Source of the DNA: Peronospora farinosa
Lineage: Eukaryota; Oomycota; Peronosporomycetes; Peronosporales; Peronosporaceae
NCBI GenBank assembly: GCA_947646735.1
Contig: CANTFK010000785.1
Coordinates: 496,001 to 560,000, forward strand
Direction: 5' to 3'
Length of the DNA stretch: 64,000 nt
The first letter of the stretch is position 1. Each line of letters begins with the position of its first letter. A model generated the notes under the pieces. The model was given only the letters and a program-made list of their open reading frames with translations. It made no database searches and was not told where the DNA came from. This document shows positions 22,319-50,940 of this stretch, piece by piece. A program made the position numbers and the translations under genes.

Positions 22319-22724
22319 TCCCGACTCTCCACTACCGTCCATACAACCATCTATCGGAAGGGGTGCTCCGTTTCCGTGTAAGGAAATTCCTTCATCACCT
22401 TGTGTACCCGTCGGCAGGGCGGGTAGCAATCTTCTCGGTGGATTTGAGTCGATGCTAAACTTGACCGTGCTTGGGATTGGTTGAGGGTCGATCGCGCAGA
22501 AATCTTCATGCGATAGAGGGTTAATTGAGGCACTCTATTTGAGTTGCCCTGATGATTCTTAAGATAGTCTTGTCTAAAAAATGTAGATACTTGATCCACT
22601 TGATACCTCTTGACCTTCTGACCACTCGAACCGTCTCGCTATCTTATATCTTTTCCTTTAATTGATACTGCGTCCAATAGCAGGCGAAGATTGCTCATGA
22701 GAGATCTTAGAATCGTTGATCCAA
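22284..22724 (+). repeat. diverged relative of the satellite monomer
   Basis: Aligns at roughly 75-80% by eye with about 440 bases of each monomer (for example 23996-24400). Shared blocks include CACCTTGTGTACCCGTCGG, GTAGATACTTGATCCACTTG and CTGCGTCCAAT. It lies directly upstream of the array but outside it and lacks the minisatellite half of the monomer. It may represent the element from which the monomer was derived. Confidence 0.8.
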
Positions 22725-24704
22725 ACTTTTGATCGACTTCACCACAGGGACGCCAGTATCAGTACGGCAAACGTGCAGTGCTTTTTCATGGCTTTCCATG
22801 CATCGCTTGTAAACTTACAGGCTCGCGTTTCTAAAGTGGTCGGCGCTAGTCTGACTTCAGTGTAGTGGAGTGGAATTCGCAAAATTGCTGATGTGATCCC
22901 AGCTATTCTTGGGGTGCTCTATTTGAGTCGCCCTGATCTCTCTTGAGATCGCCTTGTCCAAAAATGTAGATACTTGATCCACTTGATATACTTGATCTTC
23001 TGACCACTTGAGCCGTCTCGCGATCTTGTACCTTGTCCTTTTCTTGTTGTGCTGCGTCCAATCGCAGGGGGAGTTGTTTGTTGAGAATTCTTGCAATCCC
23101 TGGCCAAACAATCCAGGGATATGACTTGCGTAGTATGTGGACTTCCTTGAGACGTCGGGAGGCCAAAGAATTCAGCCCGGAAGAGAAGTCGACACGTGTA
23201 TTTAGAAGCAAATTGAACTCTGTTAATGTTAACCAATCAAATACCAAAACCTATGATCTTGACTATCTGTAGCTCAGGATCTGTTGCCACGTATCGCCCT
23301 TTCGGAAAAATCAGATCTTGTAATGTGGTCCACTCCAATATCGCCGCGATCTGGATCGCTACCTCGCTCGGATATAATACCATTTTAGTACCAGATCGCG
23401 GTACTAAATAATTAATATCGGATCGCGGTACTAATAATTAGTATCGGATCGCGGTACTAAATAATAAGTATCGGATCTCGATACTAATAATTAGCATCGG
23501 ATCGCGATACGCCGGATCACGACTTGTCCTCTTCACCGTTTCTCAGGTCATGTGAGATAGCTCATCTATGTGACATGTCATATCCACTATTCCAGTCCTC
23601 CATAGCGACGTGATCCACACCAGACCGTCTTCCACATGCTTGGATGTACCCATCTTCCTCCTTAGCGATCGCGTTCACGCGGATCGCCATCGGAAATACT
23701 GGAGATCGCAATAGCGTAGTTCCTAGGCCATATTTGACCCCACATAGAACTGCAAACTACACCATTCACTGTTTTCCATCCCATTTGACGTCATCTCCAA
23801 ACCTTTCTGCGAGATCGCGACTCATCAATATTGGCCACGAGATCGCGACTCATTAATATTGGCCATTTCGGACTTAACCGAAAATATGCGATCACACTTT
23901 GCGAAATTCACTCCTTCACTTCGCCACATCAGCGAACACCTTGAACACGATATTATTAATATCTTAATTACTAATTTGCGGCCCGATGTAATTGTGGTGG
24001 AGTGGGATTCACAAAATTGCTGATGTGATTTCAGCTCTCCACTGGCACCGACTAACGGAGGGGGTACCGCGATTCCGTGTGTATACCCTTCCTCACCTTG
24101 TGTACCCGTCGGTAGGGCGGGTTGCTCTCTTCTCGGTAGACTTGAGTCGATGTTGAACTTGATTGTGTTAGGGATAGGTGGGGGGCGATCGAGTGGAATT
24201 ACTCACACGATCGCAGTTGTTCTTGGGGTGCTCTATTTGAGTCGCCCTGATCTCTCTTGAGATCGCCTTGTCCAAAAATGTAGATACTTGATCCACTTGA
24301 TATACTTGATCTTCTGACCACTTGAGCCGTCTCGCGATCTTGTACCTTGTCCTTTTCTTGTTGTGCTGCGTCCAATCGCAGGGGGAGTTGTTTGTTGAGA
24401 ATTCTTGCAATCCCTGGCCAAACAATCCAGGGATATGACTTGCGTAGTATGTGGACTTCCTTGAGACGTCGGGAGGCCAAAGAATTCAGCCCGGAAGAGA
24501 AGTCGACACGTGTATTTAGAAGCAAATTGAACTCTGTTAATGTTAACCAATCAAATACCAAAACCTATGATCTTGACTATCTGTAGCTCAGGATCTGTTG
24601 CCACGTATCGCCCTTTCGGAAAAATCAGATCTTGTAATGTGGTCCACTCCAATATCGCCGCGATCTGGATCGCTACCTCGCTCGGATATAATACCATTTT
24701 AGTA

Positions 24705-24828
24705 CCAGATCGCGGTACTAAATAATTAATATCGGATCGCAATACTAAATAATTAGTATCGGATCGCGATACTAATAATTATTTTGGATCGCGGTACTAA
24801 TAATTAGCATCGGATCGCGATACGCCGG
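24705..24828. repeat. short form of monomer minisatellite (5 units)
   Basis: Units of 25-27 bp with core TATCGGATCGCGATACTAAT and AT-rich linkers (AATAATTA). Each core is an imperfect palindrome around GATC. This form is in monomers of 1313-1315 bp. Confidence 0.9.
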
Positions 24829-27329
24829 ATCACGACTTGTCCTCTTCACCGTTTCTCAGGTCATGTGAGATAGCTCATCTATGTGACATGTCATATCCAC
24901 TATTCCAGTCCTCCATAGCGACGTGATCCACACCAGACCGTCTTCCACATGCTTGGATGTACCCATCTTCCTCCTTAGCGATCGCGTTCACGCGGATCGC
25001 CATCGGAAATACTGGAGATCGCAATAGCGTAGTTCCTAGGCCATATTTGACCCCACATAGAACTGCAAACTACACCATTCACTGTTTTCCATCCCATTTG
25101 ACGTCATCTCCAAACCTTTCTGCGAGATCGCGACTCATCAATATTGGCCACGAGATCGCGACTCATTAATATTGGCCATTTCGGACTTAACCGAAAATAT
25201 GCGATCACACTTTGCGAAATTCACTCCTTCACTTCGCCACATCAGCGAACACCTTGAACACGATATTATTAATATCTTAATTACTAATTTGCGGCCCGAT
25301 GTAATTGTGGTGGAGTGGGATTCACAAAATTGCTGATGTGATTTCAGCTCTCCACTGGCACCGACTAACGGAGGGGGTACCGCGATTCCGTGTGTATACC
25401 CTTCCTCACCTTGTGTACCCGTCGGTAGGGCGGGTTGCTCTCTTCTCGGTAGACTTGAGTCGATGTTGAACTTGATTGTGTTAGGGATAGGTGGGGGGCG
25501 ATCGAGTGGAATTACTCACACGATCGCAGTTGTTCTTGGGGTGCTCTATTTGAGTCGCCCTGATCTCTCTTGAGATCGCCTTGTCCAAAAATGTAGATAC
25601 TTGATCCACTTGATATACTTGATCTTCTGACCACTTGAGCCGTCTCGCGATCTTGTACCTTGTCCTTTTCTTGTTGTGCTGCGTCCAATCGCAGGGGGAG
25701 TTGTTTGTTGAGAATTCTTGCAATCCCTGGCCAAACAATCCAGGGATATGACTTGCGTAGTATGTGGACTTCCTTGAGACGTCGGGAGGCCAAAGAATTC
25801 AGCCCGGAAGAGAAGTCGACACGTGTATTTAGAAGCAAATTGAACTCTGTTAATGTTAACCAATCAAATACCAAAACCTATGATCTTGACTATCTGTAGC
25901 TCAGGATCTGTTGCCACGTATCGCCCTTTCGGAAAAATCAGATCTTGTAATGTGGTCCACTCCAATATCGCCGCGATCTGGATCGCTACCTCGCTCGGAT
26001 ATAATACCATTTTAGTACCAGATCGCGGTACTAAATAATTAATATCGGATCGCAATACTAAATAATTAGTATCGGATCGCGGTACTAAATAATTAGTATC
26101 GGATCGCGATACTAATAATTAGCATCGGATCGCGATACGCCGGATCACGACTTGTCCTCTTCACCGTTTCTCAGGTCATGTGAGATAGCTCATCTATGTG
26201 ACATGTCATATCCACTATTCCAGTCCTCCATAGCGACGTGATCCACACCAGACCGTCTTCCACATGCTTGGATGTACCCATCTTCCTCCTTAGCGATCGC
26301 GTTCACGCGGATCGCCATCGGAAATACTGGAGATCGCAATAGCGTAGTTCCTAGGCCATATTTGACCCCACATAGAACTGCAAACTACACCATTCACTGT
26401 TTTCCATCCCATTTGACGTCATCTCCAAACCTTTCTGCGAGATCGCGACTCATCAATATTGGCCACGAGATCGCGACTCATTAATATTGGCCATTTCGGA
26501 CTTAACCGAAAATATGCGATCACACTTTGCGAAATTCACTCCTTCACTTCGCCACATCAGCGAACACCTTGAACACGATATTATTAATATCTTAATTACT
26601 AATTTGCGGCCCGATGTAATTGTGGTGGAGTGGGATTCACAAAATTGCTGATGTGATTTCAGCTCTCCACTGGCACCGACTAACGGAGGGGGTACCGCGA
26701 TTCCGTGTGTATACCCTTCCTCACCTTGTGTACCCGTCGGTAGGGCGGGTTGCTCTCTTCTCGGTAGACTTGAGTCGATGTTGAACTTGATTGTGTTAGG
26801 GATAGGTGGGGGGCGATCGAGTGGAATTACTCACACGATCGCAGTTGTTCTTGGGGTGCTCTATTTGAGTCGCCCTGATCTCTCTTGAGATCGCCTTGTC
26901 CAAAAATGTAGATACTTGATCCACTTGATATACTTGATCTTCTGACCACTTGAGCCGTCTCGCGATCTTGTACCTTGTCCTTTTCTTGTTGTGCTGCGTC
27001 CAATCGCAGGGGGAGTTGTTTGTTGAGAATTCTTGCAATCCCTGGCCAAACAATCCAGGGATATGACTTGCGTAGTATGTGGACTTCCTTGAGACGTCGG
27101 GAGGCCAAAGAATTCAGCCCGGAAGAGAAGTCGACACGTGTATTTAGAAGCAAATTGAACTCTGTTAATGTTAACCAATCAAATACCAAAACCTATGATC
27201 TTGACTATCTGTAGCTCAGGATCTGTTGCCACGTATCGCCCTTTCGGAAAAATCAGATCTTGTAATGTGGTCCACTCCAATATCGCCGCGATCTGGATCG
27301 CTACCTCGCTCGGATATAATACCATTTTA

Positions 27330-27608
27330 GTACCAGATCGCGGTACTAAATAATTAATATCGGATCGCAATACTAAATAATTAATATCGGATCGCAATAC
27401 TAAATAATTAGTATCGGATCGCGATACTAATAATTATTTTGGATCGCGGTACTAAATAATAAGTATCGGATCGCGATATTAATTATTTAGTATTGCGATA
27501 CTAATAATTAATATCGGATCGCGGTACTAATAATTAGTATCGGATCGCGGTACTAAATAATAAGTATCGGATCGCGATACTAATAATTAGCATCGGATCG
27601 CGATACGC
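27330..27608. repeat. long form of monomer minisatellite (about 11 units)
   Basis: Same unit as the short form with about six extra copies, including one in altered register (GATATTAATTATTTAGTATT). It accounts for the 155-bp length gain of the 1468-bp monomers. Confidence 0.9.
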
Positions 27609-30600
27609 CGGATCACGACTTGTCCTCTTCACCGTTTCTCAGGTCATGTGAGATAGCTCATCTATGTGACATGTCATATCCACTATTCCAGTCCTCCATA
27701 GCGACGTGATCCACACCAGACCGTCTTCCACATGCTTGGATGTACCCATCTTCCTCCTTAGCGATCGCGTTCACGCGGATCGCCATCGGAAATACTGGAG
27801 ATCGCAATAGCGTAGTTCCTAGGCCATATTTGACCCCACATAGAACTGCAAACTACACCATTCACTGTTTTCCATCCCATTTGACGTCATCTCCAAACCT
27901 TTCTGCGAGATCGCGACTCATCAATATTGGCCACGAGATCGCGACTCATTAATATTGGCCATTTCGGACTTAACCGAAAATATGCGATCACACTTTGCGA
28001 AATTCACTCCTTCACTTCGCCACATCAGCGAACACCTTGAACACGATATTATTAATATCTTAATTACTAATTTGCGGCCCGATGTAATTGTGGTGGAGTG
28101 GGATTCACAAAATTGCTGATGTGATTTCAGCTCTCCACTGGCACCGACTAACGGAGGGGGTACCGCGATTCCGTGTGTATACCCTTCCTCACCTTGTGTA
28201 CCCGTCGGTAGGGCGGGTTGCTCTCTTCTCGGTAGACTTGAGTCGATGTTGAACTTGATTGTGTTAGGGATAGGTGGGGGGCGATCGAGTGGAATTACTC
28301 ACACGATCGCAGTTGTTCTTGGGGTGCTCTATTTGAGTCGCCCTGATCTCTCTTGAGATCGCCTTGTCCAAAAATGTAGATACTTGATCCACTTGATATA
28401 CTTGATCTTCTGACCACTTGAGCCGTCTCGCGATCTTGTACCTTGTCCTTTTCTTGTTGTGCTGCGTCCAATCGCAGGGGGAGTTGTTTGTTGAGAATTC
28501 TTGCAATCCCTGGCCAAACAATCCAGGGATATGACTTGCGTAGTATGTGGACTTCCTTGAGACGTCGGGAGGCCAAAGAATTCAGCCCGGAAGAGAAGTC
28601 GACACGTGTATTTAGAAGCAAATTGAACTCTGTTAATGTTAACCAATCAAATACCAAAACCTATGATCTTGACTATCTGTAGCTCAGGATCTGTTGCCAC
28701 GTATCGCCCTTTCGGAAAAATCAGATCTTGTAATGTGGTCCACTCCAATATCGCCGCGATCTGGATCGCTACCTCGCTCGGATATAATACCATTTTAGTA
28801 CCAGATCGCGGTACTAAATAATTAATATCGGATCGCAATACTAAATAATTAATATCGGATCGCAATACTAAATAATTAGTATCGGATCGCGATACTAATA
28901 ATTATTTTGGATCGCGGTACTAAATAATAAGTATCGGATCGCGATATTAATTATTTAGTATTGCGATACTAATAATTAATATCGGATCGCGGTACTAATA
29001 ATTAGTATCGGATCGCGGTACTAAATAATAAGTATCGGATCGCGATACTAATAATTAGCATCGGATCGCGATACGCCGGATCACGACTTGTCCTCTTCAC
29101 CGTTTCTCAGGTCATGTGAGATAGCTCATCTATGTGACATGTCATATCCACTATTCCAGTCCTCCATAGCGACGTGATCCACACCAGACCGTCTTCCACA
29201 TGCTTGGATGTACCCATCTTCCTCCTTAGCGATCGCGTTCACGCGGATCGCCATCGAGAAATACTGGAGATCGCAATAGCGTAGTTCCTAGGCCATATTT
29301 GACCCCACATAGAACTGCAAACTACACCATTCACTGTTTTCCATCCCATTTGACGTCATCTCCAAACCTTTCTGCGAGATCGCGACTCATCAATATTGGC
29401 CACGAGATCGCGACTCATTAATATTGGCCATTTCGGACTTAACCGAAAATATGCGATCACACTTTGCGAAATTCACTCCTTCACTTCGCCACATCAGCGA
29501 ACACCTTGAACACGATATTATTAATATCTTAATTACTAATTTGCGGCCCGATGTAATTGTGGTGGAGTGGGATTCACAAAATTGCTGATGTGATTTCAGC
29601 TCTCCACTGGCACCGACTAACGGAGGGGGTACCGCGATTCCGTGTGTATACCCTTCCTCACCTTGTGTACCCGTCGGTAGGGCGGGTTGCTCTCTTCTCG
29701 GTAGACTTGAGTCGATGTTGAACTTGATTGTGTTAGGGATAGGTGGGGGGCGATCGAGTGGAATTACTCACACGATCGCAGTTGTTCTTGGGGTGCTCTA
29801 TTTGAGTCGCCCTGATCTCTCTTGAGATCGCCTTGTCCAAAAATGTAGATACTTGATCCACTTGATATACTTGATCTTCTGACCACTTGAGCCGTCTCGC
29901 GATCTTGTACCTTGTCCTTTTCTTGTTGTGCTGCGTCCAATCGCAGGGGGAGTTGTTTGTTGAGAATTCTTGCAATCCCTGGCCAAACAATCCAGGGATA
30001 TGACTTGCGTAGTATGTGGACTTCCTTGAGACGTCGGGAGGCCAAAGAATTCAGCCCGGAAGAGAAGTCGACACGTGTATTTAGAAGCAAATTGAACTCT
30101 GTTAATGTTAACCAATCAAATACCAAAACCTATGATCTTGACTATCTGTAGCTCAGGATCTGTTGCCACGTATCGCCCTTTCGGAAAAATCAGATCTTGT
30201 AATGTGGTCCACTCCAATATCGCCGCGATCTGGATCGCTACCTCGCTCGGATATAATACCATTTTAGTACCAGATCGCGGTACTAAATAATTAATATCGG
30301 ATCGCAATACTAAATAATTAATATCGGATCGCAATACTAAATAATTAGTATCGGATCGCGATACTAATAATTATTTTGGATCGCGGTACTAAATAATAAG
30401 TATCGGATCGCGATATTAATTATTTAGTATTGCGATACTAATAATTAATATCGGATCGCGGTACTAATAATTAGTATCGGATCGCGGTACTAAATAATAA
30501 GTATCGGATCGCGATACTAATAATTAGCATCGGATCGCGATACGCCGGATCACGACTTGTCCTCTTCACCGTTTCTCAGGTCATGTGAGATAGCTCATCT

Positions 30601-33600
30601 ATGTGACATGTCATATCCACTATTCCAGTCCTCCATAGCGACGTGATCCACACCAGACCGTCTTCCACATGCTTGGATGTACCCATCTTCCTCCTTAGCG
30701 ATCGCGTTCACGCGGATCGCCATCGGAAATACTGGAGATCGCAATAGCGTAGTTCCTAGGCCATATTTGACCCCACATAGAACTGCAAACTACACCATTC
30801 ACTGTTTTCCATCCCATTTGACGTCATCTCCAAACCTTTCTGCGAGATCGCGACTCATCAATATTGGCCACGAGATCGCGACTCATTAATATTGGCCATT
30901 TCGGACTTAACCGAAAATATGCGATCACACTTTGCGAAATTCACTCCTTCACTTCGCCACATCAGCGAACACCTTGAACACGATATTATTAATATCTTAA
31001 TTACTAATTTGCGGCCCGATGTAATTGTGGTGGAGTGGGATTCACAAAATTGCTGATGTGATTTCAGCTCTCCACTGGCACCGACTAACGGAGGGGGTAC
31101 CGCGATTCCGTGTGTATACCCTTCCTCACCTTGTGTACCCGTCGGTAGGGCGGGTTGCTCTCTTCTCGGTAGACTTGAGTCGATGTTGAACTTGATTGTG
31201 TTAGGGATAGGTGGGGGGCGATCGAGTGGAATTACTCACACGATCGCAGTTGTTCTTGGGGTGCTCTATTTGAGTCGCCCTGATCTCTCTTGAGATCGCC
31301 TTGTCCAAAAATGTAGATACTTGATCCACTTGATATACTTGATCTTCTGACCACTTGAGCCGTCTCGCGATCTTGTACCTTGTCCTTTTCTTGTTGTGCT
31401 GCGTCCAATCGCAGGGGGAGTTGTTTGTTGAGAATTCTTGCAATCCCTGGCCAAACAATCCAGGGATATGACTTGCGTAGTATGTGGACTTCCTTGAGAC
31501 GTCGGGAGGCCAAAGAATTCAGCCCGGAAGAGAAGTCGACACGTGTATTTAGAAGCAAATTGAACTCTGTTAATGTTAACCAATCAAATACCAAAACCTA
31601 TGATCTTGACTATCTGTAGCTCAGGATCTGTTGCCACGTATCGCCCTTTCGGAAAAATCAGATCTTGTAATGTGGTCCACTCCAATATCGCCGCGATCTG
31701 GATCGCTACCTCGCTCGGATATAATACCATTTTAGTACCAGATCGCGGTACTAAATAATTAATATCGGATCGCAATACTAAATAATTAATATCGGATCGC
31801 AATACTAAATAATTAGTATCGGATCGCGATACTAATAATTATTTTGGATCGCGGTACTAAATAATAAGTATCGGATCGCGATATTAATTATTTAGTATTG
31901 CGATACTAATAATTAATATCGGATCGCGGTACTAATAATTAGTATCGGATCGCGGTACTAAATAATAAGTATCGGATCGCGATACTAATAATTAGCATCG
32001 GATCGCGATACGCCGGATCACGACTTGTCCTCTTCACCGTTTCTCAGGTCATGTGAGATAGCTCATCTATGTGACATGTCATATCCACTATTCCAGTCCT
32101 CCATAGCGACGTGATCCACACCAGACCGTCTTCCACATGCTTGGATGTACCCATCTTCCTCCTTAGCGATCGCGTTCACGCGGATCGCCATCGGAAATAC
32201 TGGAGATCGCAATAGCGTAGTTCCTAGGCCATATTTGACCCCACATAGAACTGCAAACTACACCATTCACTGTTTTCCATCCCATTTGACGTCATCTCCA
32301 AACCTTTCTGCGAGATCGCGACTCATCAATATTGGCCACGAGATCGCGACTCATTAATATTGGCCATTTCGGACTTAACCGAAAATATGCGATCACACTT
32401 TGCGAAATTCACTCCTTCACTTCGCCACATCAGCGAACACCTTGAACACGATATTATTAATATCTTAATTACTAATTTGCGGCCCGATGTAATTGTGGTG
32501 GAGTGGGATTCACAAAATTGCTGATGTGATTTCAGCTCTCCACTGGCACCGACTAACGGAGGGGGTACCGCGATTCCGTGTGTATACCCTTCCTCACCTT
32601 GTGTACCCGTCGGTAGGGCGGGTTGCTCTCTTCTCGGTAGACTTGAGTCGATGTTGAACTTGATTGTGTTAGGGATAGGTGGGGGGCGATCGAGTGGAAT
32701 TACTCACACGATCGCAGTTGTTCTTGGGGTGCTCTATTTGAGTCGCCCTGATCTCTCTTGAGATCGCCTTGTCCAAAAATGTAGATACTTGATCCACTTG
32801 ATATACTTGATCTTCTGACCACTTGAGCCGTCTCGCGATCTTGTACCTTGTCCTTTTCTTGTTGTGCTGCGTCCAATCGCAGGGGGAGTTGTTTGTTGAG
32901 AATTCTTGCAATCCCTGGCCAAACAATCCAGGGATATGACTTGCGTAGTATGTGGACTTCCTTGAGACGTCGGGAGGCCAAAGAATTCAGCCCGGAAGAG
33001 AAGTCGACACGTGTATTTAGAAGCAAATTGAACTCTGTTAATGTTAACCAATCAAATACCAAAACCTATGATCTTGACTATCTGTAGCTCAGGATCTGTT
33101 GCCACGTATCGCCCTTTCGGAAAAATCAGATCTTGTAATGTGGTCCACTCCAATATCGCCGCGATCTGGATCGCTACCTCGCTCGGATATAATACCATTT
33201 TAGTACCAGATCGCGGTACTAAATAATTAATATCGGATCGCAATACTAAATAATTAATATCGGATCGCAATACTAAATAATTAGTATCGGATCGCGATAC
33301 TAATAATTATTTTGGATCGCGGTACTAAATAATAAGTATCGGATCGCGATACTAATTATTTAGTATTGCGATACTAATAATTAATATCGGATCGCGGTAC
33401 TAATAATTAGTATCGGATCGCGGTACTAAATAATAAGTATCGGATCGCGATACTAATAATTAGCATCGGATCGCGATACGCCGGATCACGACTTGTCCTC
33501 TTCACCGTTTCTCAGGTCATGTGAGATAGCTCATCTATGTGACATGTCATATCCACTATTCCAGTCCTCCATAGCGACGTGATCCACACCAGACCGTCTT

Positions 33601-36600: not shown

Positions 36601-39600
36601 TAGGCCATATTTGACCCCACATAGAACTGCAAACTACACCATTCACTGTTTTCCATCCCATTTGACGTCATCTCCAAACCTTTCTGCGAGATCGCGACTC
36701 ATCAATATTGGCCACGAGATCGCGACTCATTAATATTGGCCATTTCGGACTTAACCGAAAATATGCGATCACACTTTGCGAAATTCACTCCTTCACTTCG
36801 CCACATCAGCGAACACCTTGAACACGATATTATTAATATCTTAATTACTAATTTGCGGCCCGATGTAATTGTGGTGGAGTGGGATTCACAAAATTGCTGA
36901 TGTGATTTCAGCTCTCCACTGGCACCGACTAACGGAGGGGGTACCGCGATTCCGTGTGTATACCCTTCCTCACCTTGTGTACCCGTCGGTAGGGCGGGTT
37001 GCTCTCTTCTCGGTAGACTTGAGTCGATGTTGAACTTGATTGTGTTAGGGATAGGTGGGGGGCGATCGAGTGGAATTACTCACACGATCGCAGTTGTTCT
37101 TGGGGTGCTCTATTTGAGTCGCCCTGATCTCTCTTGAGATCGCCTTGTCCAAAAATGTAGATACTTGATCCACTTGATATACTTGATCTTCTGACCACTT
37201 GAGCCGTCTCGCGATCTTGTACCTTGTCCTTTTCTTGTTGTGCTGCGTCCAATCGCAGGGGGAGTTGTTTGTTGAGAATTCTTGCAATCCCTGGCCAAAC
37301 AATCCAGGGATATGACTTGCGTAGTATGTGGACTTCCTTGAGACGTCGGGAGGCCAAAGAATTCAGCCCGGAAGAGAAGTCGACACGTGTATTTAGAAGC
37401 AAATTGAACTCTGTTAATGTTAACCAATCAAATACCAAAACCTATGATCTTGACTATCTGTAGCTCAGGATCTGTTGCCACGTATCGCCCTTTCGGAAAA
37501 ATCAGATCTTGTAATGTGGTCCACTCCAATATCGCCGCGATCTGGATCGCTACCTCGCTCGGATATAATACCATTTTAGTACCAGATCGCGGTACTAAAT
37601 AATTAATATCGGATCGCAATACTAAATAATTAATATCGGATCGCAATACTAAATAATTAGTATCGGATCGCGATACTAATAATTATTTTGGATCGCGGTA
37701 CTAAATAATAAGTATCGGATCGCGATACTAATTATTTAGTATTGCGATACTAATAATTAATATCGGATCGCGGTACTAATAATTAGTATCGGATCGCGGT
37801 ACTAATAATTAGTATTGGATCGCGATACTAATAATTAGCATCGGATCGCGATACGCCGGATCACGACTTGTCCTCTTCACCGTTTCTCAGGTCATGTGAG
37901 ATAGCTCATCTATGTGACATGTCATATCCACTATTCCAGTCCTCCATAGCGACGTGATCCACACCAGACCGTCTTCCACATGCTTGGATGTACCCATCTT
38001 CCTCCTTAGCGATCGCGTTCACGCGGATCGCCATCGGAAATACTGGAGATCGCAATAGCGTAGTTCCTAGGCCATATTTGACCCCACATAGAACTGCAAA
38101 CTACACCATTCACTGTTTTCCATCCCATTTGACGTCATCTCCAAACCTTTCTGCGAGATCGCGACTCATCAATATTGGCCACGAGATCGCGACTCATTAA
38201 TATTGGCCATTTCGGACTTAACCGAAAATATGCGATCACACTTTGCGAAATTCACTCCTTCACTTCGCCACATCAGCGAACACCTTGAACACGATATTAT
38301 TAATATCTTAATTACTAATTTGCGGCCCGATGTAATTGTGGTGGAGTGGGATTCACAAAATTGCTGATGTGATTTCAGCTCTCCACTGGCACCGACTAAC
38401 GGAGGGGGTACCGCGATTCCGTGTGTATACCCTTCCTCACCTTGTGTACCCGTCGGTAGGGCGGGTTGCTCTCTTCTCGGTAGACTTGAGTCGATGTTGA
38501 ACTTGATTGTGTTAGGGATAGGTGGGGGGCGATCGAGTGGAATTACTCACACGATCGCAGTTGTTCTTGGGGTGCTCTATTTGAGTCGCCCTGATCTCTC
38601 TTGAGATCGCCTTGTCCAAAAATGTAGATACTTGATCCACTTGATATACTTGATCTTCTGACCACTTGAGCCGTCTCGCGATCTTGTACCTTGTCCTTTT
38701 CTTGTTGTGCTGCGTCCAATCGCAGGGGGAGTTGTTTGTTGAGAATTCTTGCAATCCCTGGCCAAACAATCCAGGGATATGACTTGCGTAGTATGTGGAC
38801 TTCCTTGAGACGTCGGGAGGCCAAAGAATTCAGCCCGGAAGAGAAGTCGACACGTGTATTTAGAAGCAAATTGAACTCTGTTAATGTTAACCAATCAAAT
38901 ACCAAAACCTATGATCTTGACTATCTGTAGCTCAGGATCTGTTGCCACGTATCGCCCTTTCGGAAAAATCAGATCTTGTAATGTGGTCCACTCCAATATC
39001 GCCGCGATCTGGATCGCTACCTCGCTCGGATATAATACCATTTTAGTACCAGATCGCGGTACTAAATAATTAATATCGGATCGCAATACTAAATAATTAA
39101 TATCGGATCGCAATACTAAATAATTAGTATCGGATCGCGATACTAATAATTATTTTGGATCGCGGTACTAAATAATAAGTATCGGATCGCGATACTAATT
39201 ATTTAGTATTGCGATACTAATAATTAATATCGGATCGCGGTACTAATAATTAGTATCGGATCGCGGTACTAATAATTAGTATTGGATCGCGATACTAATA
39301 ATTAGCATCGGATCGCGATACGCCGGATCACGACTTGTCCTCTTCACCGTTTCTCAGGTCATGTGAGATAGCTCATCTATGTGACATGTCATATCCACTA
39401 TTCCAGTCCTCCATAGCGACGTGATCCACACCAGACCGTCTTCCACATGCTTGGATGTACCCATCTTCCTCCTTAGCGATCGCGTTCACGCGGATCGCCA
39501 TCGGAAATACTGGAGATCGCAATAGCGTAGTTCCTAGGCCATATTTGACCCCACATAGAACTGCAAACTACACCATTCACTGTTTTCCATCCCATTTGAC

Positions 39601-42600
39601 GTCATCTCCAAACCTTTCTGCGAGATCGCGACTCATCAATATTGGCCACGAGATCGCGACTCATTAATATTGGCCATTTCGGACTTAACCGAAAATATGC
39701 GATCACACTTTGCGAAATTCACTCCTTCACTTCGCCACATCAGCGAACACCTTGAACACGATATTATTAATATCTTAATTACTAATTTGCGGCCCGATGT
39801 AATTGTGGTGGAGTGGGATTCACAAAATTGCTGATGTGATTTCAGCTCTCCACTGGCACCGACTAACGGAGGGGGTACCCCGATTCCGTGTGTATACCCT
39901 TCCTCACCTTGTGTACCCGTCGGTAGGGCGGGTTGCTCTCTTCTCGGTAGACTTGAGTCGATGTTGAACTTGATTGTGTTAGGGATAGGTGGGGGGCGAT
40001 CGAGTGGAATTACTCACACGATCGCAGTTGTTCTTGGGGTGCTCTATTTGAGTCGCCCTGATCTCTCTTGAGATCGCCTTGTCCAAAAATGTAGATACTT
40101 GATCCACTTGATATACTTGATCTTCTGACCACTTGAGCCGTCTCGCGATCTTGTACCTTGTCCTTTTCTTGTTGTGCTGCGTCCAATCGCAGGGGGAGTT
40201 GTTTGTTGAGAATTCTTGCAATCCCTGGCCAAACAATCCAGGGATATGACTTGCGTAGTATGTGGACTTCCTTGAGACGTCGGGAGGCCAAAGAATTCAG
40301 CCCGGAAGAGAAGTCGACACGTGTATTTAGAAGCAAATTGAACTCTGTTAATGTTAACCAATCAAATACCAAAACCTATGATCTTGACTATCTGTAGCTC
40401 AGGATCTGTTGCCACGTATCGCCCTTTCGGAAAAATCAGATCTTGTAATGTGGTCCACTCCAATATCGCCGCGATCTGGATCGCTACCTCGCTCGGATAT
40501 AATACCATTTTAGTACCAGATCGCGGTACTAAATAATTAATATCGGATCGCAATACTAAATAATTAATATCGGATCGCAATACTAAATAATTAGTATCGG
40601 ATCGCGATACTAATAATTATTTTGGATCGCGGTACTAAATAATAAGTATCGGATCGCGATACTAATTATTTAGTATTGCGATACTAATAATTAATATCGG
40701 ATCGCGGTACTAATAATTAGTATCGGATCGCGGTACTAATAATTAGTATTGGATCGCGATACTAATAATTAGCATCGGATCGCGATACGCCGGATCACGA
40801 CTTGTCCTCTTCACCGTTTCTCAGGTCATGTGAGATAGCTCATCTATGTGACATGTCATATCCACCATTCCAGTCCTCCATAGCGACGTGATCCACACCA
40901 GACCGTCTTCCACATGCTTGGATGTACCCATCTTCCTCCTTAGCGATCGCGTTCACGCGGATCGCCATCGGAAATACTGGAGATCGCAATAGCGTAGTTC
41001 CTAGGCCATATTTGACCCCACATAGAACTGCAAACTACACCATTCACTGTTTTCCATCCCATTTGACGTCATCTCCAAACCTTTCTGCGAGATCGCGACT
41101 CATCAATATTGGCCACGAGATCGCGACTCATTAATATTGGCCATTTCGGACTTAACCGAAAATATGCGATCACACTTTGCGAAATTCACTCCTTCACTTC
41201 GCCACATCAGCGAACACCTTGAACACGATATTATTAATATCTTAATTACTAATTTGCGGCCCGATGTAATTGTGGTGGAGTGGGATTCACAAAATTGCTG
41301 ATGTGATTTCAGCTCTCCACTGGCACCGACTAACGGAGGGGGTACCCCGATTCCGTGTGTATACCCTTCCTCACCTTGTGTACCCGTCGGTAGGGCGGGT
41401 TGCTCTCTTCTCGGTAGACTTGAGTCGATGTTGAACTTGATTGTGTTAGGGATAGGTGGGAGGCGATCGAGTGGAATTACTCACACGATCGCAGTTGTTC
41501 TTGGGGTGCTCTATTTGAGTCGCCCTGATCTCTCTTGAGATCGCCTTGTCCAAAAATGTAGATACTTGATCCACTTGATATACTTGATCTTCTGACCACT
41601 TGAGCCGTCTCGCGATCTTGTACCTTGTCCTTTTCTTGTTGTGCTGCGTCCAATCGCAGGGGGAGTTGTTTGTTGAGAATTCTTGCAATCCCTGGCCAAA
41701 CAATCCAGGGATATGACTTGCGTAGTATGTGGACTTCCTTGAGACGTCGGGAGGCCAAAGAATTCAGCCCGGAAGAGAAGTCGACACGTGTATTTAGAAG
41801 CAAATTGAACTCTGTTAATGTTAACCAATCAAATACCAAAACCTATGATCTTGACTATCTGTAGCTCAGGATCTGTTGCCACGTATCGCCCTTTCGGAAA
41901 AATCAGATCTTGTAATGTGGTCCACTCCAATATCGCCGCGATCTGGATCGCTACCTCGCTCGGATATAATACCATTTTAGTACCAGATCGCGGTACTAAA
42001 TAATTAATATCGGATCGCAATACTAAATAATTAATATCGGATCGCAATACTAAATAATTAGTATCGGATCGCGATACTAATAATTATTTTGGATCGCGGT
42101 ACTAAATAATAAGTATCGGATCGCGATACTAATTATTTAGTATTGCGATACTAATAATTAATATCGGATCGCGGTACTAATAATTAGTATCGGATCGCGG
42201 TACTAATAATTAGTATTGGATCGCGATACTAATAATTAGCATCGGATCGCGATACGCCGGATCACGACTTGTCCTCTTCACCGTTTCTCAGGTCATGTGA
42301 GATAGCTCATCTATGTGACATGTCATATCCACCATTCCAGTCCTCCATAGCGACGTGATCCACACCAGACCGTCTTCCACATGCTTGGATGTACCCATCT
42401 TCCTCCTTAGCGATCGCGTTCACGCGGATCGCCATCGGAAATACTGGAGATCGCAATAGCGTAGTTCCTAGGCCATATTTGACCCCACATAGAACTGCAA
42501 ACTACACCATTCACTGTTTTCCATCCCATTTGACGTCATCTCCAAACCTTTCTGCGAGATCGCGACTCATCAATATTGGCCACGAGATCGCGACTCATTA

Positions 42601-45600
42601 ATATTGGCCATTTCGGACTTAACCGAAAATATGCGATCACACTTTGCGAAATTCACTCCTTCACTTCGCCACATCAGCGAACACCTTGAACACGATATTA
42701 TTAATATCTTAATTACTAATTTGCGGCCCGATGTAATTGTGGTGGAGTGGGATTCACAAAATTGCTGATGTGATTTCAGCTCTCCACTGGCACCGACTAA
42801 CGGAGGGGGTACCCCGATTCCGTGTGTATACCCTTCCTCACCTTGTGTACCCGTCGGTAGGGCGGGTTGCTCTCTTCTCGGTAGACTTGAGTCAAAAAAA
42901 ATTATTGATGTTAGGAACTTGATTGTGTTAGGGATAGGTGGGGGCGATCGAGTGGAATTACTCACACGATCGCAGTTGTTCTTGGGGTGCTCTATTTGAG
43001 TCGCCCTGATCTCTCTTGAGATCGCCTTGTCCAAAAATGTAGATACTTGATCCACTTGATATACTTGATCTTCTGACCACTTGAGCCGTCTCGCGATCTT
43101 GTACCTTGTCCTTTTCTTGTTGTGCTGCGTCCAATCGCAGGGGGAGTTGTTTGTTGAGAATTCTTGCAATCCCTGGCCAAACAATCCAGGGATATGACTT
43201 GCGTAGTATGTGGACTTCCTTGAGACGTCGGGAGGCCAAAGAATTCAGCCCGGAAGAGAAGTCGACACGTGTATTTAGAAGCAAATTGAACTCTGTTAAT
43301 GTTAACCAATCAAATACCAAAACCTATGATCTTGACTATCTGTAGCTCAGGATCTGTTGCCACGTATCGCCCTTTCGGAAAAATCAGATCTTGTAATGTG
43401 GTCCACTCCAATATCGCCGCGATCTGGATCGCTACCTCGCTCGGATATAATACCATTTTAGTACCAGATCGCGGTACTAAATAATTAATATCGGATCGCA
43501 ATACTAAATAATTAGTATCGGATCGCGATACTAATAATTATTTTGGATCGCGGTACTAATAATTAGCATCGGATCGCGATACGCCGGATCACGACTTGTC
43601 CTCTTCACCGTTTCTCAGGTCATGTGAGATAGCTCATCTATGTGACATGTCATATCCACCATTCCAGTCCTCCATAGCGACGTGATCCACACCAGACCGT
43701 CTTCCACATGCTTGGATGTACCCATCTTCCTCCTTAGCGATCGCGTTCACGCGGATCGCCATCGGAAATACTGGAGATCGCAATAGCGTAGTTCCTAGGC
43801 CATATTTGACCCCACATAGAACTGCAAACTACACCATTCACTGTTTTCCATCCCATTTGACGTCATCTCCAAACCTTTCTGCGAGATCGCGACTCATCAA
43901 TATTGGCCACGAGATCGCGACTCATTAATATTGGCCATTTCGGACTTAACCGAAAATATGCGATCACACTTTGCGAAATTCACTCCTTCACTTCGCCACA
44001 TCAGCGAACACCTTGAACACGATATTATTAATATCTTAATTACTAATTTGCGGCCCGATGTAATTGTGGTGGAGTGGGATTCACAAAATTGCTGATGTGA
44101 TTTCAGCTCTCCACTGGCACCGACTAACGGAGGGGGTACCCCGATTCCGTGTGTATACCCTTCCTCACCTTGTGTACCCGTCGGTAGGGCGGGTTGCTCT
44201 CTTCTCGGTAGACTTGATGTCGATGTTGGAACTTGATTGTGTTAGGGATAGGTGGGGGGCGATCGAGTGGAATTACTCACACGATCGCAGTTGTTCTTGG
44301 GGTGCTCTATTTGAGTCGCCCTGATCTCTCTTGAGATCGCCTTGTCCAAAAATGTAGATACTTGATCCACTTGATATACTTGATCTTCTGACCACTTGAG
44401 CCGTCTCGCGATCTTGTACCTTGTCCTTTTCTTGTTGTGCTGCGTCCAATCGCAGGGGGAGTTGTTTGTTGAGAATTCTTGCAATCCCTGGCCAAACAAT
44501 CCAGGGATATGACTTGCGTAGTATGTGGACTTCCTTGAGACGTCGGGAGGCCAAAGAATTCAGCCCGGAAGAGAAGTCGACACGTGTATTTAGAAGCAAA
44601 TTGAACTCTGTTAATGTTAACCAATCAAATACCAAAACCTATGATCTTGACTATCTGTAGCTCAGGATCTGTTGCCACGTATCGCCCTTTCGGAAAAATC
44701 AGATCTTGTAATGTGGTCCACTCCAATATCGCCGCGATCTGGATCGCTACCTCGCTCGGATATAATACCATTTTAGTACCAGATCGCGGTACTAAATAAT
44801 TAATATCGGATCGCAATACTAAATAATTAGTATCGGATCGCGATACTAATAATTATTTTGGATCGCGGTACTAATAATTAGCATCGGATCGCGATACGCC
44901 GGATCACGACTTGTCCTCTTCACCGTTTCTCAGGTCATGTGAGATAGCTCATCTATGTGACATGTCATATCCACCATTCCAGTCCTCCATAGCGACGTGA
45001 TCCACACCAGACCGTCTTCCACATGCTTGGATGTACCCATCTTCCTCCTTAGCGATCGCGTTCACGCGGATCGCCATCGGAAATACTGGAGATCGCAATA
45101 GCGTAGTTCCTAGGCCATATTTGACCCCACATAGAACTGCAAACTACACCATTCACTGTTTTCCATCCCATTTGACGTCATCTCCAAACCTTTCTGCGAG
45201 ATCGCGACTCATCAATATTGGCCACGAGATCGCGACTCATTAATATTGGCCATTTCGGACTTAACCGAAAATATGCGATCACACTTTGCGAAATTCACTC
45301 CTTCACTTCGCCACATCAGCGAACACCTTGAACACGATATTATTAATATCTTAATTACTAATTTGCGGCCCGATGTAATTGTGGTGGAGTGGGATTCACA
45401 AAATTGCTGATGTGATTTCAGCTCTCCACTGGCACCGACTAACGGAGGGGGTACCCCGATTCCGTGTGTATACCCTTCCTCACCTTGTGTACCCGTCGGT
45501 AGGGCGGGTTGCTCTCTTCTCGGTAGACTTGAGTCGATGTTGAACTTGATTGTGTTAGGGATAGGTGGGGGGCGATCGAGTGGAATTACTCACACGATCG

Positions 45601-48600
45601 CAGTTGTTCTTGGGGTGCTCTATTTGAGTCGCCCTGATCTCTCTTGAGATCGCCTTGTCCAAAAATGTAGATACTTGATCCACTTGATATACTTGATCTT
45701 CTGACCACTTGAGCCGTCTCGCGATCTTGTACCTTGTCCTTTTCTTGTTGTGCTGCGTCCAATCGCAGGGGGAGTTGTTTGTTGAGAATTCTTGCAATCC
45801 CTGGCCAAACAATCCAGGGATATGACTTGCGTAGTATGTGGACTTCCTTGAGACGTCGGGAGGCCAAAGAATTCAGCCCGGAAGAGAAGTCGACACGTGT
45901 ATTTAGAAGCAAATTGAACTCTGTTAATGTTAACCAATCAAATACCAAAACCTATGATCTTGACTATCTGTAGCTCAGGATCTGTTGCCACGTATCGCCC
46001 TTTCGGAAAAATCAGATCTTGTAATGTGGTCCACTCCAATATCGCCGCGATCTGGATCGCTACCTCGCTCGGATATAATACCATTTTAGTACCAGACCGC
46101 GGTACTAAATAATTAATATCGGATCGCAATACTAAATAATTAGTATCGGATCGCGATACTAATAATTATTTTGGATCGCGGTACTAATAATTAGCATCGG
46201 ATCGCGATACGCCGGATCACGACTTGTCCTCTTCACCGTTTCTCAGGTCATGTGAGATAGCTCATCTATGTGACATGTCATATCCACCATTCCAGTCCTC
46301 CATAGCGACGTGATCCACACCAGACCGTCTTCCACATGCTTGGATGTACCCATCTTCCTCCTTAGCGATCGCGTTCACGCGGATCGCCATCGGAAATACT
46401 GGAGATCGCAATAGCGTAGTTCCTAGGCCATATTTGACCCCACATAGAACTGCAAACTACACCATTCACTGTTTTCCATCCCATTTGACGTCATCTCCAA
46501 ACCTTTCTGCGAGATCGCGACTCATCAATATTGGCCACGAGATCGCGACTCATTAATATTGGCCATTTCGGACTTAACCGAAAATATGCGATCACACTTT
46601 GCGAAATTCACTCCTTCACTTCGCCACATCAGCGAACACCTTGAACACGATATTATTAATATCTTAATTACTAATTTGCGGCCCGATGTAATTGTGGTGG
46701 AGTGGGATTCACAAAATTGCTGATGTGATTTCAGCTCTCCACTGGCACCGACTAACGGAGGGGGTACCCCGATTCCGTGTGTATACCCTTCCTCACCTTG
46801 TGTACCCGTCGGTAGGGCGGGTTGCTCTCTTCTCGGTAGACTTGAGTCGATGTTGAACTTGATTGTGTTAGGGATAGGTGGGGGGCGATCGAGTGGAATT
46901 ACTCACACGATCGCAGTTGTTCTTGGGGTGCTCTATTTGAGTCGCCCTGATCTCTCTTGAGATCGCCTTGTCCAAAAATGTAGATACTTGATCCACTTGA
47001 TATACTTGATCTTCTGACCACTTGAGCCGTCTCGCGATCTTGTACCTTGTCCTTTTCTTGTTGTGCTGCGTCCAATCGCAGGGGGAGTTGTTTGTTGAGA
47101 ATTCTTGCAATCCCTGGCCAAACAATCCAGGGATATGACTTGCGTAGTATGTGGACTTCCTTGAGACGTCGGGAGGCCAAAGAATTCAGCCCGGAAGAGA
47201 AGTCGACACGTGTATTTAGAAGCAAATTGAACTCTGTTAATGTTAACCAATCAAATACCAAAACCTATGATCTTGACTATCTGTAGCTCAGGATCTGTTG
47301 CCACGTATTGCCCTTTCGGAAAAATCAGATCTTGTAATGTGGTCCACTCCAATATCGCCGCGATCTGGATCGCTACCTCGCTCGGATATAATACCATTTT
47401 AGTACCAGACCGCGGTACTAAATAATTAATATCGGATCGCAATACTAAATAATTAGTATCGGATCGCGATACTAATAATTATTTTGGATCGCGGTACTAA
47501 TAATTAGCATCGGATCGCGATACGCCGGATCACGACTTGTCCTCTTCACCGTTTCTCAGGTCATGTGAGATAGCTCATCTATGTGACATGTCATATCCAC
47601 CATTCCAGTCCTCCATAGCGACGTGATCCACACCAGACCGTCTTCCACATGCTTGGATGTACCCATCTTCCTCCTTAGCGATCGCGTTCACGCGGATCGC
47701 CATCGGAAATACTGGAGATCGCAATAGCGTAGTTCCTAGGCCATATTTGACCCCACATAGAACTGCAAACTACACCATTCACTGTTTTCCATCCCATTTG
47801 ACGTCATCTCCAAACCTTTCTGCGAGATCGCGACTCATCAATATTGGCCACGAGATCGCGACTCATTAATATTGGCCATTTCGGACTTAACCGAAAATAT
47901 GCGATCACACTTTGCGAAATTCACTCCTTCACTTCGCCACATCAGCGAACACCTTGAACACGATATTATTAATATCTTAATTACTAATTTGCGGCCCGAT
48001 GTAATTGTGGTGGAGTGGGATTCACAAAATTGCTGATGTGATTTCAGCTCTCCACTGGCACCGACTAACGGAGGGGGTACCCCGATTCCGTGTGTATACC
48101 CTTCCTCACCTTGTGTACCCGTCGGTAGGGCGGGTTGCTCTCTTCTCGGTAGACTTGAGTCGATGTTGAGCTTGATTGTGTTAGGGATAGGTGGGGGGCG
48201 ATCGAGTGGAATTACTCACACGATCGCAGTTGTTCTTGGGGTGCTCTATTTGAGTCGCCCTGATCTCTCTTGAGATCGCCTTGTCCAAAAATGTAGATAC
48301 TTGATCCACTTGATATACTTGATCTTCTGACCACTTGAGCCGTCTCGCGATCTTGTACCTTGTCCTTTTCTTGTTGTGCTGCGTCCAATCGCAGGGGGAG
48401 TTGTTTGTTGAGAATTCTTGCAATCCCTGGCCAAACAATCCAGGGATATGACTTGCGTAGTATGTGGACTTCCTTGAGACGTCGGGAGGCCAAAGAATTC
48501 AGCCCGGAAGAGAAGTCGACACGTGTATTTAGAAGCAAATTGAACTCTGTTAATGTTAACCAATCAAATACCAAAACCTATGATCTTGACTATCTGTAGC

Positions 48601-49386
48601 TCAGGATCTGTTGCCACGTATTGCCCTTTCGGAAAAATCAGATCTTGTAATGTGGTCCACTCCAATATCGCCGCGATCTGGATCGCTACCTCGCTCGGAT
48701 ATAATACCATTTTAGTACCAGATCGCGGTACTAAATAATTAATATCGGATCGCAATACTAAATAATTAATATCGGATCGCGATACTAATAATTATTTTGG
48801 ATCGCGGTACTAAATAATAAGTATCGGATCGCGATACTAATAATTAATATCGGATCGCGATACTAATAATTAATATCGGATCGCGGTACTAATAATTAGT
48901 ATCGGATCGCGATACTAATAATTAGTATTGGATCGCGATACTAATAATTAGCATCGGATCGCGATACGCCGGATCACGACTTGTCCTCTTCACCGTTTCT
49001 CAGGTCATGTGAGATAGCTCATCTATGTGACATGTCATATCCACCATTCCAGTCCTCCATAGCGACGTGATCCACACCAGACCGTCTTCCACATGCTTGG
49101 ATGTACCCATCTTCCTCCTTAGCGATCGCGTTCACGCGGATCGCCATCGGAAATACTGGAGATCGCAATAGCGTAGTTCCTAGGCCATATTTGACCCCAC
49201 ATAGAACTGCAAACTCCACCATTCACTGTTTTCCATCCCATTTGACGTCATCTCCAAACCTTTCTGCGAGATCGCGACTCATCAATATTGGCCACGAGAT
49301 CGCGACTCATCAATATTGGCCATTTCGGACTTAACCGAAAATATGCGATCACACTTCGCCAAATTCACTCCTTCGCTTCTCCACAG

Positions 49387-49741
49387 TCGCGATCCACACT
49401 TTGCGCAATTCCACTATTCCACATTCACTTATAATCCGTACAAATTCAATCCATCCAATTGGAATAGTCGATACTGGAATCCAGTATAATCCCAACAGTG
49501 ATCTATCTAATGATAACCAAATATAATTCGGAAATGTGAGTATGCCATGTATCTTCACCTTAAGTATGTTTCAATCCATAATATCATCGTCTTCGATACC
49601 ATTAATCCTTTCTTCATTCGTTTTATTGAACAAACAAATAAACGATCTTGGATCAACGGTGCTTTTCCATTCGATCGTTCATGAATTGAGATCGACTTCA
49701 TCACACCCAATAAGTCATTTTAGTAAGTGACTTAATGGGGA
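49387..49741. other. right flank of the satellite array, no gene seen
   Basis: AT-rich unique-looking sequence. No copy of it was noticed elsewhere in the window. Confidence 0.5.
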
Positions 49742-49917
49742 AAAGGGATCCAACCGTTATGAGAAAGGGATCCAACCGTTATGAGAAAGGGATCCGACCT
49801 TTATGGGAAAGGAATCCGACCGTTATGGGAAAGGACTCCAACCGTTATGAGAATGGGATCCAACCATTATGAGAATGGGATCCAACCATTATGAGAAAAA
49901 AATCCGGCCGTTAGAGA
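49742..49917. repeat. 22-bp minisatellite, 8 units
   Basis: Units of the form AAAGGGATCCAACCGTTATGAG repeat exactly in register eight times with point changes (CCGACC, CCAACCATT). Each unit holds GGATCC or a one-base variant. Confidence 0.95.
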
Positions 49918-50740: not shown

Positions 50741-50940
50741 GATATGGAGACCCCAGAAGCCAGTTGGATTCGTAGTATAAAAGACCGTGTATCACGAAGA
50801 AGAGACCAGAGAGACAGTGAACTCGAGGGGAAGCGACCTTTGGCGGATCACAATTTGCAGGACCCACAAAAGAGAAATCATTATCAGGGTACCGGTTAAT
50901 CGGTACCGAAGGGAGTCGACCATGGGCTCCTTTGGAAGGC

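What the first reader, a model, noticed from the sequence alone, without database searches (positions are those of the whole stretch)
22860..49386. 26.5-kb homogeneous satellite array with ~1.3-1.47-kb monomers
Nineteen evenly spaced anchors show one uninterrupted head-to-tail array with near-identical monomers. Such long, complex monomers are unlike simple satellites and not something I can match to a known oomycete family from memory. Position and homogeneity would suit a centromeric, pericentromeric or subtelomeric block, or a recombination-driven amplification. The seen part is the array. Its role is inference.
Basis: partly seen in the sequence, partly recalled or inferred. Interest (0 to 1): 0.8.

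Follow-up and report, generated by a model that had tools for sequence, protein, structure and literature searches.

The report
Young satellite built from retrotransposon ends
A 27-kb stretch of near-identical repeats in a downy-mildew-like genome looks like a young tandem array made from the end-repeats of two jumping elements that landed 64 bases apart in a decayed gene, so the birth of a satellite DNA can be read from its two edges.

Summary
The array is real: 19 head-to-tail copies, from 22861 to 50003, about 600 bp further right than stated. The monomer is one complete LTR (1249-1405 bp) of a dispersed Ty3/gypsy retrotransposon plus a 64-bp linker. A 25-bp pattern of the LTR start has 414 genome matches (up to 2 mismatches) and 0 in the reversed control.

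All 18 linkers are identical and are host DNA: left flank, linker and right flank are contiguous in two paralogous loci. The two outer LTRs have different 4-bp target duplications (TCAG, TAAT) and are different LTR-length variants. The 17 inner copies carry the last LTR's left junction and the first LTR's right junction; most diagnostic sites agree, with one exception on each side.

So two separate LTR insertions, 64 bp apart in a decayed gene copy, most likely recombined unequally, and the hybrid unit amplified. Neighbouring copies are more alike than chance gives, which suggests stepwise unequal exchange; a rolling-circle route is not excluded. I found no evidence for a centromeric, telomeric or rDNA role; chromatin and read depth could not be examined. 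LTR-derived satellites are known in plants; the unusual part is an origin readable to the base, here in an oomycete.

The parts
22746..22860 (+). Left flank: decayed copy of a host gene family, up to the insertion point of LTR-A
   Evidence: Aligns to L051 (C261) 926-1041 and L052 (C67) 970-1033, in register with linker and right flank
22857..22860 (.). Target-site duplication TCAG, left copy (insertion A)
   Evidence: The same 4 bases open every linker; present once at this place in L051, where L052 reads TCTG
22861..23928 (-). Copy 1 = LTR-A: short-LTR type right end, with a 182-bp deletion; element sense is the minus strand
   Evidence: orientation from the ORFs
23929..23932 (.). Target-site duplication TCAG, right copy (insertion A), at the start of linker 1 and repeated in all 18 linkers
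23929..23992 (.). Linker 1 of 18 (64 bp of host DNA, identical in all 18)
23993..47941 (-). Copies 2-18: 17 hybrid LTRs (1249-1405 bp) with linkers between them; left junction as in LTR-B, right junction as in LTR-A
26621..42673 (-). Block of 11 long-form copies (4-14) with 9 (8 in copy 9) instead of 4 internal 26-27-bp subrepeats
47942..48005 (.). Linker 18 of 18; its last 4 bases TAAT (48002-48005) are the left target-site copy of insertion B
48006..50003 (-). Copy 19 = LTR-B: long-LTR variant, 1998 bp
   Evidence: Matches other long-LTR copies mostly at 85-89% up to position 1998, e.g. L017 over 1-1998 at 87.3%
50004..50007 (.). Target-site duplication TAAT, right copy (insertion B)
50004..50499 (+). 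Right flank: the same decayed host gene copy resumes
   Evidence: Aligns to L051 1096-1489 and L052 1140-1652 (alignments begin at 50001)
22286..22746 (-). Older, diverged LTR fragment of the same family just left of the array
   Evidence: 76% identity over 22286-22684; its end reads ...CCACA against the host sequence

Best explanation
SHOWN: the repeat unit is one full LTR of a dispersed Ty3/gypsy retrotransposon plus 64 bp of host DNA. That 64 bp is the stretch of a decayed gene copy lying between two LTR insertions in the same orientation: A (short-LTR type, duplication TCAG) on the left and B (long-LTR type, duplication TAAT) on the right. SHOWN: the 17 inner LTRs have B's left junction and A's right junction, and most diagnostic sites on either side of the subrepeat region agree, with one exception on each side. 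INFERRED: A and B mispaired between chromatids and crossed over within the LTR, giving A-linker-(B/A hybrid)-linker-B. Once three LTRs were present, further unequal exchange and conversion grew the array to 19, and secondary variants (subrepeat number, point changes) spread to neighbours. INFERRED, not tested: it has no selected function; it is a young selfish or neutral satellite whose copy number should vary between isolates.
For: (1) LTR identity: a 25-bp pattern of its start has 414 hits at up to 2 mismatches, 0 in the control. Outer flanks of full elements show a 4-bp duplication in 4 of 4 usable cases: CTGA, CGAT, TAGA, GTCT. The 1870-aa ORF of one element matches aspartyl protease, RVT_1, RNase H and integrase H2C2 above Pfam cut-offs; rve and Chromo lie below cut-off. 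(2) Uninterrupted site: left flank, linker and right flank are collinear and contiguous in L051 and L052 (BLAST E 2.5e-16 and 1.1e-14; 1.2e-16 and 7.7e-13; 6.3e-80 and 2.7e-97). (3) Two different 4-bp duplications at the outer edges, each with its partner in every linker. (4) Hybrid inner copies: at LTR position 19 the 17 inner copies and B share an A that 30 of 31 dispersed LTRs lack; the string GATTTCAG is in B and the inner copy printed, but in neither A nor the 9 dispersed LTRs printed. At 6 of 6 tabulated sites from 1080 to 1244 all 17 inner copies match A against B, and all 17 end at the short-type end directly before a linker, without B's further 618 bp. (5) Neighbours are more alike: Mantel r 0.50, 0 of 20000 permutations reach it; adjacent copies differ by 3.3 events against 6.0 over all pairs.
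Against: Two sites do not fit a simple two-part hybrid: 617 is A-like in 16 of 17 inner copies although on the B-like side, and 909 is split, 11 A-like and 6 B-like. Sites 4 and 14 of copy 1 (31 of 31 dispersed LTRs have the other base) are private changes of copy 1, and sites 221, 225 and 227 lie at its deletion edge and depend on the alignment, so they do not support hybridity. The table left out positions 691-841 (subrepeats), where alignment is ambiguous and position 764 of B is also private. The 31 dispersed LTRs were mostly the best matches, not a random sample, and some come from the same element. Between about 230 and 700 A, B and the inner copies are nearly identical, so later conversion has blurred the founding event. 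Neighbour similarity does not exclude rolling-circle amplification followed by exchange. Copy number rests on the assembly alone.
Confidence: 0.86

Rival explanations
1. Same two-insertion founder, but amplified through a circle: A x B recombination within one chromatid excises a circle of one hybrid LTR plus linker, which is copied by rolling circle and put back at an LTR by homologous recombination. (This shares the founder with the best explanation, so the confidences overlap.)
For: The excised circle would have exactly the observed unit. Identical copies exist: one sequence three times (copies 4, 6, 7) and another three times (copies 10-12).
Against: Variants are graded along the array and neighbours are most alike; a single rolling-circle event would give one variant throughout. 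A mixture of routes is possible.
Confidence: 0.25
2. Internally deleted LTR element (LTR, 64-bp remnant of its own internal region, LTR) amplified, as proposed for the maize CRM repeats or seen in Cassandra arrays.
For: Such arrays exist in plants, and this genome has cases whose spacer is the element's own internal sequence: C7, 738 bp, and one junction at C264.
Against: The linker matches neither internal border of the element in the copies printed. It matches the gap between the two flanks in two paralogous loci, and there are two different duplications rather than one.
Confidence: 0.03
3. Centromeric or other structural satellite with a chromosome function.
For: Long homogeneous array. Retrotransposon-derived satellites in plants sit in or near centromeres (PMC3648361, PMC7004042, passages). 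A Copia-like fragment lies at 57.3-58.6 kb of the window and was not compared with CoLT.
Against: The unit was found at one locus only. The parent element is gypsy-type, not Copia-like CoLT as in P. sojae centromeres (PMC7082073, passages). No chromatin data were available.
Confidence: 0.06
4. Assembly artefact: a short A-linker-B structure expanded, or a longer array shortened, by the assembler.
For: Some copies are identical to the base (two sequences three times each), and read depth could not be examined.
Against: 15 distinct LTR sequences among 19 with spatially ordered variants, unique flanks on both sides, and inner copies whose junctions need a real hybrid.
Confidence: 0.06

Closest known systems
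Sobo satellite of wild potato (seen only as described in passages of PMC3648361)
   Same: Long-monomer tandem array including LTR sequence of a gypsy element plus genomic DNA
   Different: 4.7-kb monomer over about 360 kb in a pericentromere; here 1.3-1.47 kb over 27 kb, with founding insertions, duplications and uninterrupted paralogous loci identified
CRM1TR and CRM4TR of maize (PMC3648361, passages)
   Same: Tandem repeats (CRM4TR average 1386 nt) made from LTR parts of Ty3/gypsy elements; nested insertions and gene conversion are discussed there
   Different: Monomers are part of the LTR plus the element's own UTR; here a whole LTR plus host DNA from between two insertions
Cassandra and BARE1 LTR tandems of plants (PMC7215508, passages)
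   Same: Head-to-tail LTR arrays, discussed there in terms of LTR recombination and unequal crossing-over
   Different: Their spacers are the element's own internal domain; here host DNA. C31 and C7 in this genome are nearer to that type
Ogre-derived satellites of Lathyrus sativus (PMC7004042, passages)
   Same: Satellites born from LTR retrotransposons
   Different: Derived from short tandem repeats in the 3'UTR, not from whole LTRs
PpSat1 and PpSat2 of Phytophthora parasitica (PMC7290008, passages)
   Same: Oomycete satellite arrays
   Different: PpSat2 mean monomer 142 bp; PpSat1 more than twice that (table entries of about 325 bp); no sequence comparison was made here

Membership tests
LTR of a Ty3/gypsy retrotransposon | Paired direct repeats TG...CA around an internal region | tested here: met
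   Same-strand pairs at C20, C132, C210 and C31 with TGTGG start; exact CCACA ends in C20, C132, C210 (short type) and in C31 (long type)
LTR of a Ty3/gypsy retrotransposon | Short fixed-length target-site duplication | tested here: met
   4 bp in 4 of 4 usable outer pairs (C20, C132, C210, C31); two rows not used: C49 (opposite strands, not one element) and C7 (inner copies)
LTR of a Ty3/gypsy retrotransposon | Protease, RT, RNase H, then integrase in one ORF | tested here: met
   L023 ORF, 1870 aa, in that order; rve and Chromo under the curated cut-off; one element scanned
LTR of a Ty3/gypsy retrotransposon | Primer binding site and polypurine tract next to the LTRs | tested here: inconclusive
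   In element sense ATGGTGCGCGTGCCCGG follows one LTR and AGGGGACGAT precedes the other (read); the primer tRNA was not sought
Satellite DNA | Long head-to-tail array of near-identical units | tested here: met
   19 copies, 96.8-100%
Satellite DNA | Amplified family at several loci or in high copy number | tested here: not met
   The unit with this linker was found at one locus only; better called a young single-locus array
Oomycete centromere repeat (CoLT type) | Clustered Copia-like CoLT elements | tested here: not met
   The array's element is gypsy-type; a Copia-like fragment at 57.3-58.6 kb was not compared with CoLT
Oomycete centromere repeat (CoLT type) | CENP-A enrichment | not testable with these tools
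   No ChIP data
rDNA or 5S spacer array | An RNA gene in each unit | tested here: not met
   No Rfam family at gathering score and no tRNA in the window
Own-internal-domain LTR tandem (Cassandra/BARE1 type) | Spacer derived from the element's internal region | tested here: not met
   Linker is host DNA

The most novel reading that the evidence does not exclude
This is a general and continuing route of satellite birth in compact, LTR-rich oomycete genomes. Any two same-sense LTRs landing within about 100 bp can turn the DNA between them, even a gene fragment, into a tandem array. Because every unit carries an LTR with its subrepeats, the array may be transcribed and seed small RNAs or heterochromatin that act on homologous gene copies elsewhere (the C261 and C67 paralogues share the linker).
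Probability: 0.12. Interest if true: 0.75.

Novelty: new variant of a known kind. Interest (0 to 1): 0.5.

Why it matters
How a satellite array starts is usually erased by later homogenisation (general knowledge, not from a call). Here both founding insertions, their target duplications, the host DNA trapped between them, two uninterrupted paralogous loci and the hybrid inner copies can be seen together, so the order of events can be tested step by step. It also shows a simple way for transposons to amplify a piece of a host gene, and it predicts copy-number differences between isolates at one defined locus.

Tried and rejected
Rejected: rDNA/5S or other RNA-gene array. Rejected: protein-coding tandem gene; the 121- and 125-aa minus-strand ORFs repeated in the array are parts of the frame that in the C20 element runs from the LTR into the first internal ORF (that ORF has no Pfam match). 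Rejected: linker as remnant of the element's own internal region. Looked for and not found: this linker at other LTR pairs. A search for LTR-end, 0-60 bp, LTR-start gave three hits on a 7-base end motif, with other linkers, not followed up; for 60-120 bp it gave the 18 of this array and one at C264 with another spacer. Spacers above 120 bp were not searched for. Led nowhere: no Pfam family for the C261 and C67 ORFs (one Peronospora effusa relative, named OTU domain-containing by UniRef); no telomere motif in the last 2.5 kb of the contig (the other end was not read); C36 shares only 73-75% identity over the first 160-205 bp of the LTR. The species was not established: the best outside relative of a flanking ORF is from Peronospora belbahrii at 71%. 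Literature: oomycete searches listed no paper whose title or abstract start describes such an array, and narrower ones returned no paper; this covers the open-licence library only. Six papers were opened, passages only: PMC7215508, PMC3648361, PMC11139960, PMC7004042, PMC7290008, PMC7082073.
Full report
Observation. The window holds 19 head-to-tail copies starting between 22861 and 48006. 20-mer multiplicity is about 18-19 inside and 1 outside. Copies 2-18 are 98.9-100% identical over aligned columns; the first and last are the most divergent. There are 15 distinct sequences among 19. Eleven consecutive copies (4-14) have 9 (8 in copy 9) internal 26-27-bp subrepeats where copies 1-3 and 15-18 have 4, which accounts for most of the difference between the 1313-bp and 1467-bp periods.

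What the monomer is. The window is C210:496001-560000 of a 46.85-Mb, 274-contig assembly. A search of that genome with one monomer gave 99 matches, with 39 of 1275 candidates scored, so this is a lower bound. In the copies examined the matches form one unit that starts at TGTGGTGGAG and in the short type ends at CGCCACA; the 64 bases between end and start in the array are not next to the other LTR copies printed. A 25-bp pattern of the unit's start has 414 matches at up to 2 mismatches, 0 in the reversed control. A 30-bp pattern covering the border between internal sequence and LTR has 468 matches at up to 3 mismatches, control 0. Some copies come in same-strand pairs about 8.6 or 12 kb apart, with recurring internal sequence at both borders. 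LTRs are 99.3-100% identical within the elements at C20, C132 and C210, and 99.7-99.8% between adjacent copies at C31. Outer flanks show a 4-bp duplication in 4 of 4 usable cases: CTGA, CGAT, TAGA, GTCT. Two rows of that table were dropped: C49, where the two LTRs lie on opposite strands and so are not one element, and C7, where the rows are inner copies. The second internal ORF of the C20 element carries aspartyl protease, RT, RNase H and integrase H2C2 matches above the Pfam cut-offs, with rve and Chromo below; the first ORF has no match. The monomer therefore contains a complete LTR of a Ty3/gypsy retrotransposon, recently active to judge by its LTR pairs. The coding sense of that element is the minus strand of the window.

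What the linker is. All 18 linkers are identical, 64 bp. In the own-genome search this linker occurs 18 times here, and about 52 bases of it occur at 89-91% and 85% identity in C261 and C67. At those two places the counterparts of the window's left flank (from 22746), the linker and the right flank (alignments begin at 50001, host sequence at 50004) follow one another. The linker and both flanks thus come from one decayed copy of a host gene family. The linker has a 1-base gap against both relatives, and in C261 the frame is open there, so this copy was probably frame-shifted before the array grew. The C261 ORF has one relative in the protein database, a Peronospora effusa protein with the UniRef name OTU domain-containing (82% identity over 66% of the query). 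Pfam finds no family.

How it began. The left flank ends in TCAG and each linker starts with TCAG. Each linker ends in TAAT and the right flank starts with TAAT after LTR-B. In C261 each of these tetranucleotides is present once at the corresponding place; in C67 the TCAG place reads TCTG. That is the signature of two insertions, A at TCAG and B at TAAT, in the same orientation, 64 bp apart (one copy of each duplication included). A has the short-LTR right end. B has the long-LTR right end shared with C171, C193, C263, C31, C7 and C190. The 17 inner LTRs join the linker's TAAT end to an LTR start, as B does, and an LTR end to the linker's TCAG end, as A does, so they should be B/A hybrids. Point differences mostly agree. 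On the left, at position 19 the 17 inner copies and B share a base that 30 of 31 dispersed LTRs lack, and GATTTCAG is in B and the inner copy printed but not in A or the 9 dispersed LTRs printed. On the right, at 6 of 6 tabulated sites from 1080 to 1244 all 17 inner copies follow A, and all 17 stop at the short-type end without B's further 618 bp. Against this, site 617 is A-like in 16 of 17 although on the left side. Site 909 is split 11 to 6; there the base shared with A is the one that 31 of 31 dispersed LTRs lack. Sites 4 and 14 are private changes of copy 1, and 221, 225 and 227 lie at its deletion edge. Positions 691-841 were left out of that table as ambiguous. The 31 dispersed LTRs were mostly best matches and not independent. 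The middle of the LTR is nearly identical in A, B and the inner copies, so later conversion or exchange has blurred the exact crossover point.

How it grew. Among copies 2-18, sequence difference rises with distance along the array (Mantel r 0.50; 0 of 20000 permutations as high; adjacent mean 3.3 events, overall 6.0), and variants lie in blocks. This is what repeated unequal exchange and local conversion would give. A contribution from rolling-circle copies of a hybrid-LTR circle cannot be excluded.

Is it alone? A search for LTR end, 60-120 bases, LTR start gave 19 hits: the 18 of this array and one at C264 whose spacer, as far as printed, is the element's own internal sequence. For 0-60 bases, 3 hits on a short end motif were found, about what chance could give by my own rough estimate (not from a call), and were not followed. 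Longer spacers were not searched for. Other tandem LTR structures exist: C31 (LTR-internal-LTR-internal-LTR with outer duplication GTCT), C7 (three LTRs at 2041-bp spacing with two identical 738-bp spacers that begin with the element's own internal border sequence), and C36 (five hits about 4.0-4.15 kb apart of a related, diverged LTR). So LTR tandems recur in this genome; among those I looked at, only the present array has host DNA as spacer.

Function. I think it most likely has none and is a neutral or selfish young array; this was not tested. A centromere role found no support: P. sojae centromeres are marked by Copia-like CoLT clusters (PMC7082073 and PMC11139960, passages), whereas this is a gypsy LTR array whose unit was found at one locus. 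A Copia-like fragment to the right was not compared with CoLT. No telomere-type motif was found in the last 2.5 kb of the contig. Expression, chromatin and read depth could not be examined.

Comparison. LTR-derived tandem repeats are known from plants: maize CRM1TR/CRM4TR and the potato Sobo satellite (PMC3648361, passages), Cassandra and BARE1 tandems (PMC7215508, passages), and Ogre-derived satellites (PMC7004042, passages). Described oomycete satellites are PpSat1 and PpSat2 of P. parasitica (PMC7290008, passages), with much shorter monomers. Sobo is the nearest in content (LTR plus genomic DNA). What differs here is that the two founding insertions, their duplications and uninterrupted paralogous loci are identified. 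I call it a new variant of a known kind.

Noticed in passing
G000 C7:409116-416600 (L053, L054): Second LTR tandem of the same family: three LTRs at 2041-bp spacing with two identical 738-bp spacers that begin with the element's own internal border sequence; the third LTR is the long variant and leads into further element sequence.
   Followed up: partly
G000 C31:54178-73400 (L021, L022): LTR-internal-LTR-internal-LTR tandem with outer 4-bp duplication GTCT, as expected from LTR recombination after one insertion.
   Followed up: partly
G000 C36:5851-22104 (L056): Five hits about 4.0-4.15 kb apart of a related, diverged LTR; in L056 a 643-bp stretch recurs after 4058 bp at 99.5%, with complex inner repeats.
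   Followed up: partly
window 22286-22746: Older LTR fragment (76%) ending directly at the decayed host gene, 115 bp left of LTR-A: perhaps a third insertion of the family here, though the sequence to its left does not match the gene relatives.
   Followed up: partly
window 3764-4422 and 6825-7483: 659-bp inverted repeat, 99.2% identical.
   Followed up: no
window 50940-51153: 20-bp minisatellite (CCCGGTCCCTCATCGGTAGA type); by eye, similar motifs flank the LTR insertions at C210:144-157 kb and C10.
   Followed up: no
window 53034-53711: 225-aa ORF that by eye resembles repeat-type oomycete secreted effector domains (recalled, no call); no Pfam match.
   Followed up: no
window 57328-58550: Fragments of a Copia-like pol (weak Pol_BBD and SH3_retrovirus matches, both below cut-off).
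   Followed up: no
L023:1076-3940: In the C20 element a frame is open from within the LTR into the first internal ORF without a stop.
   Followed up: no
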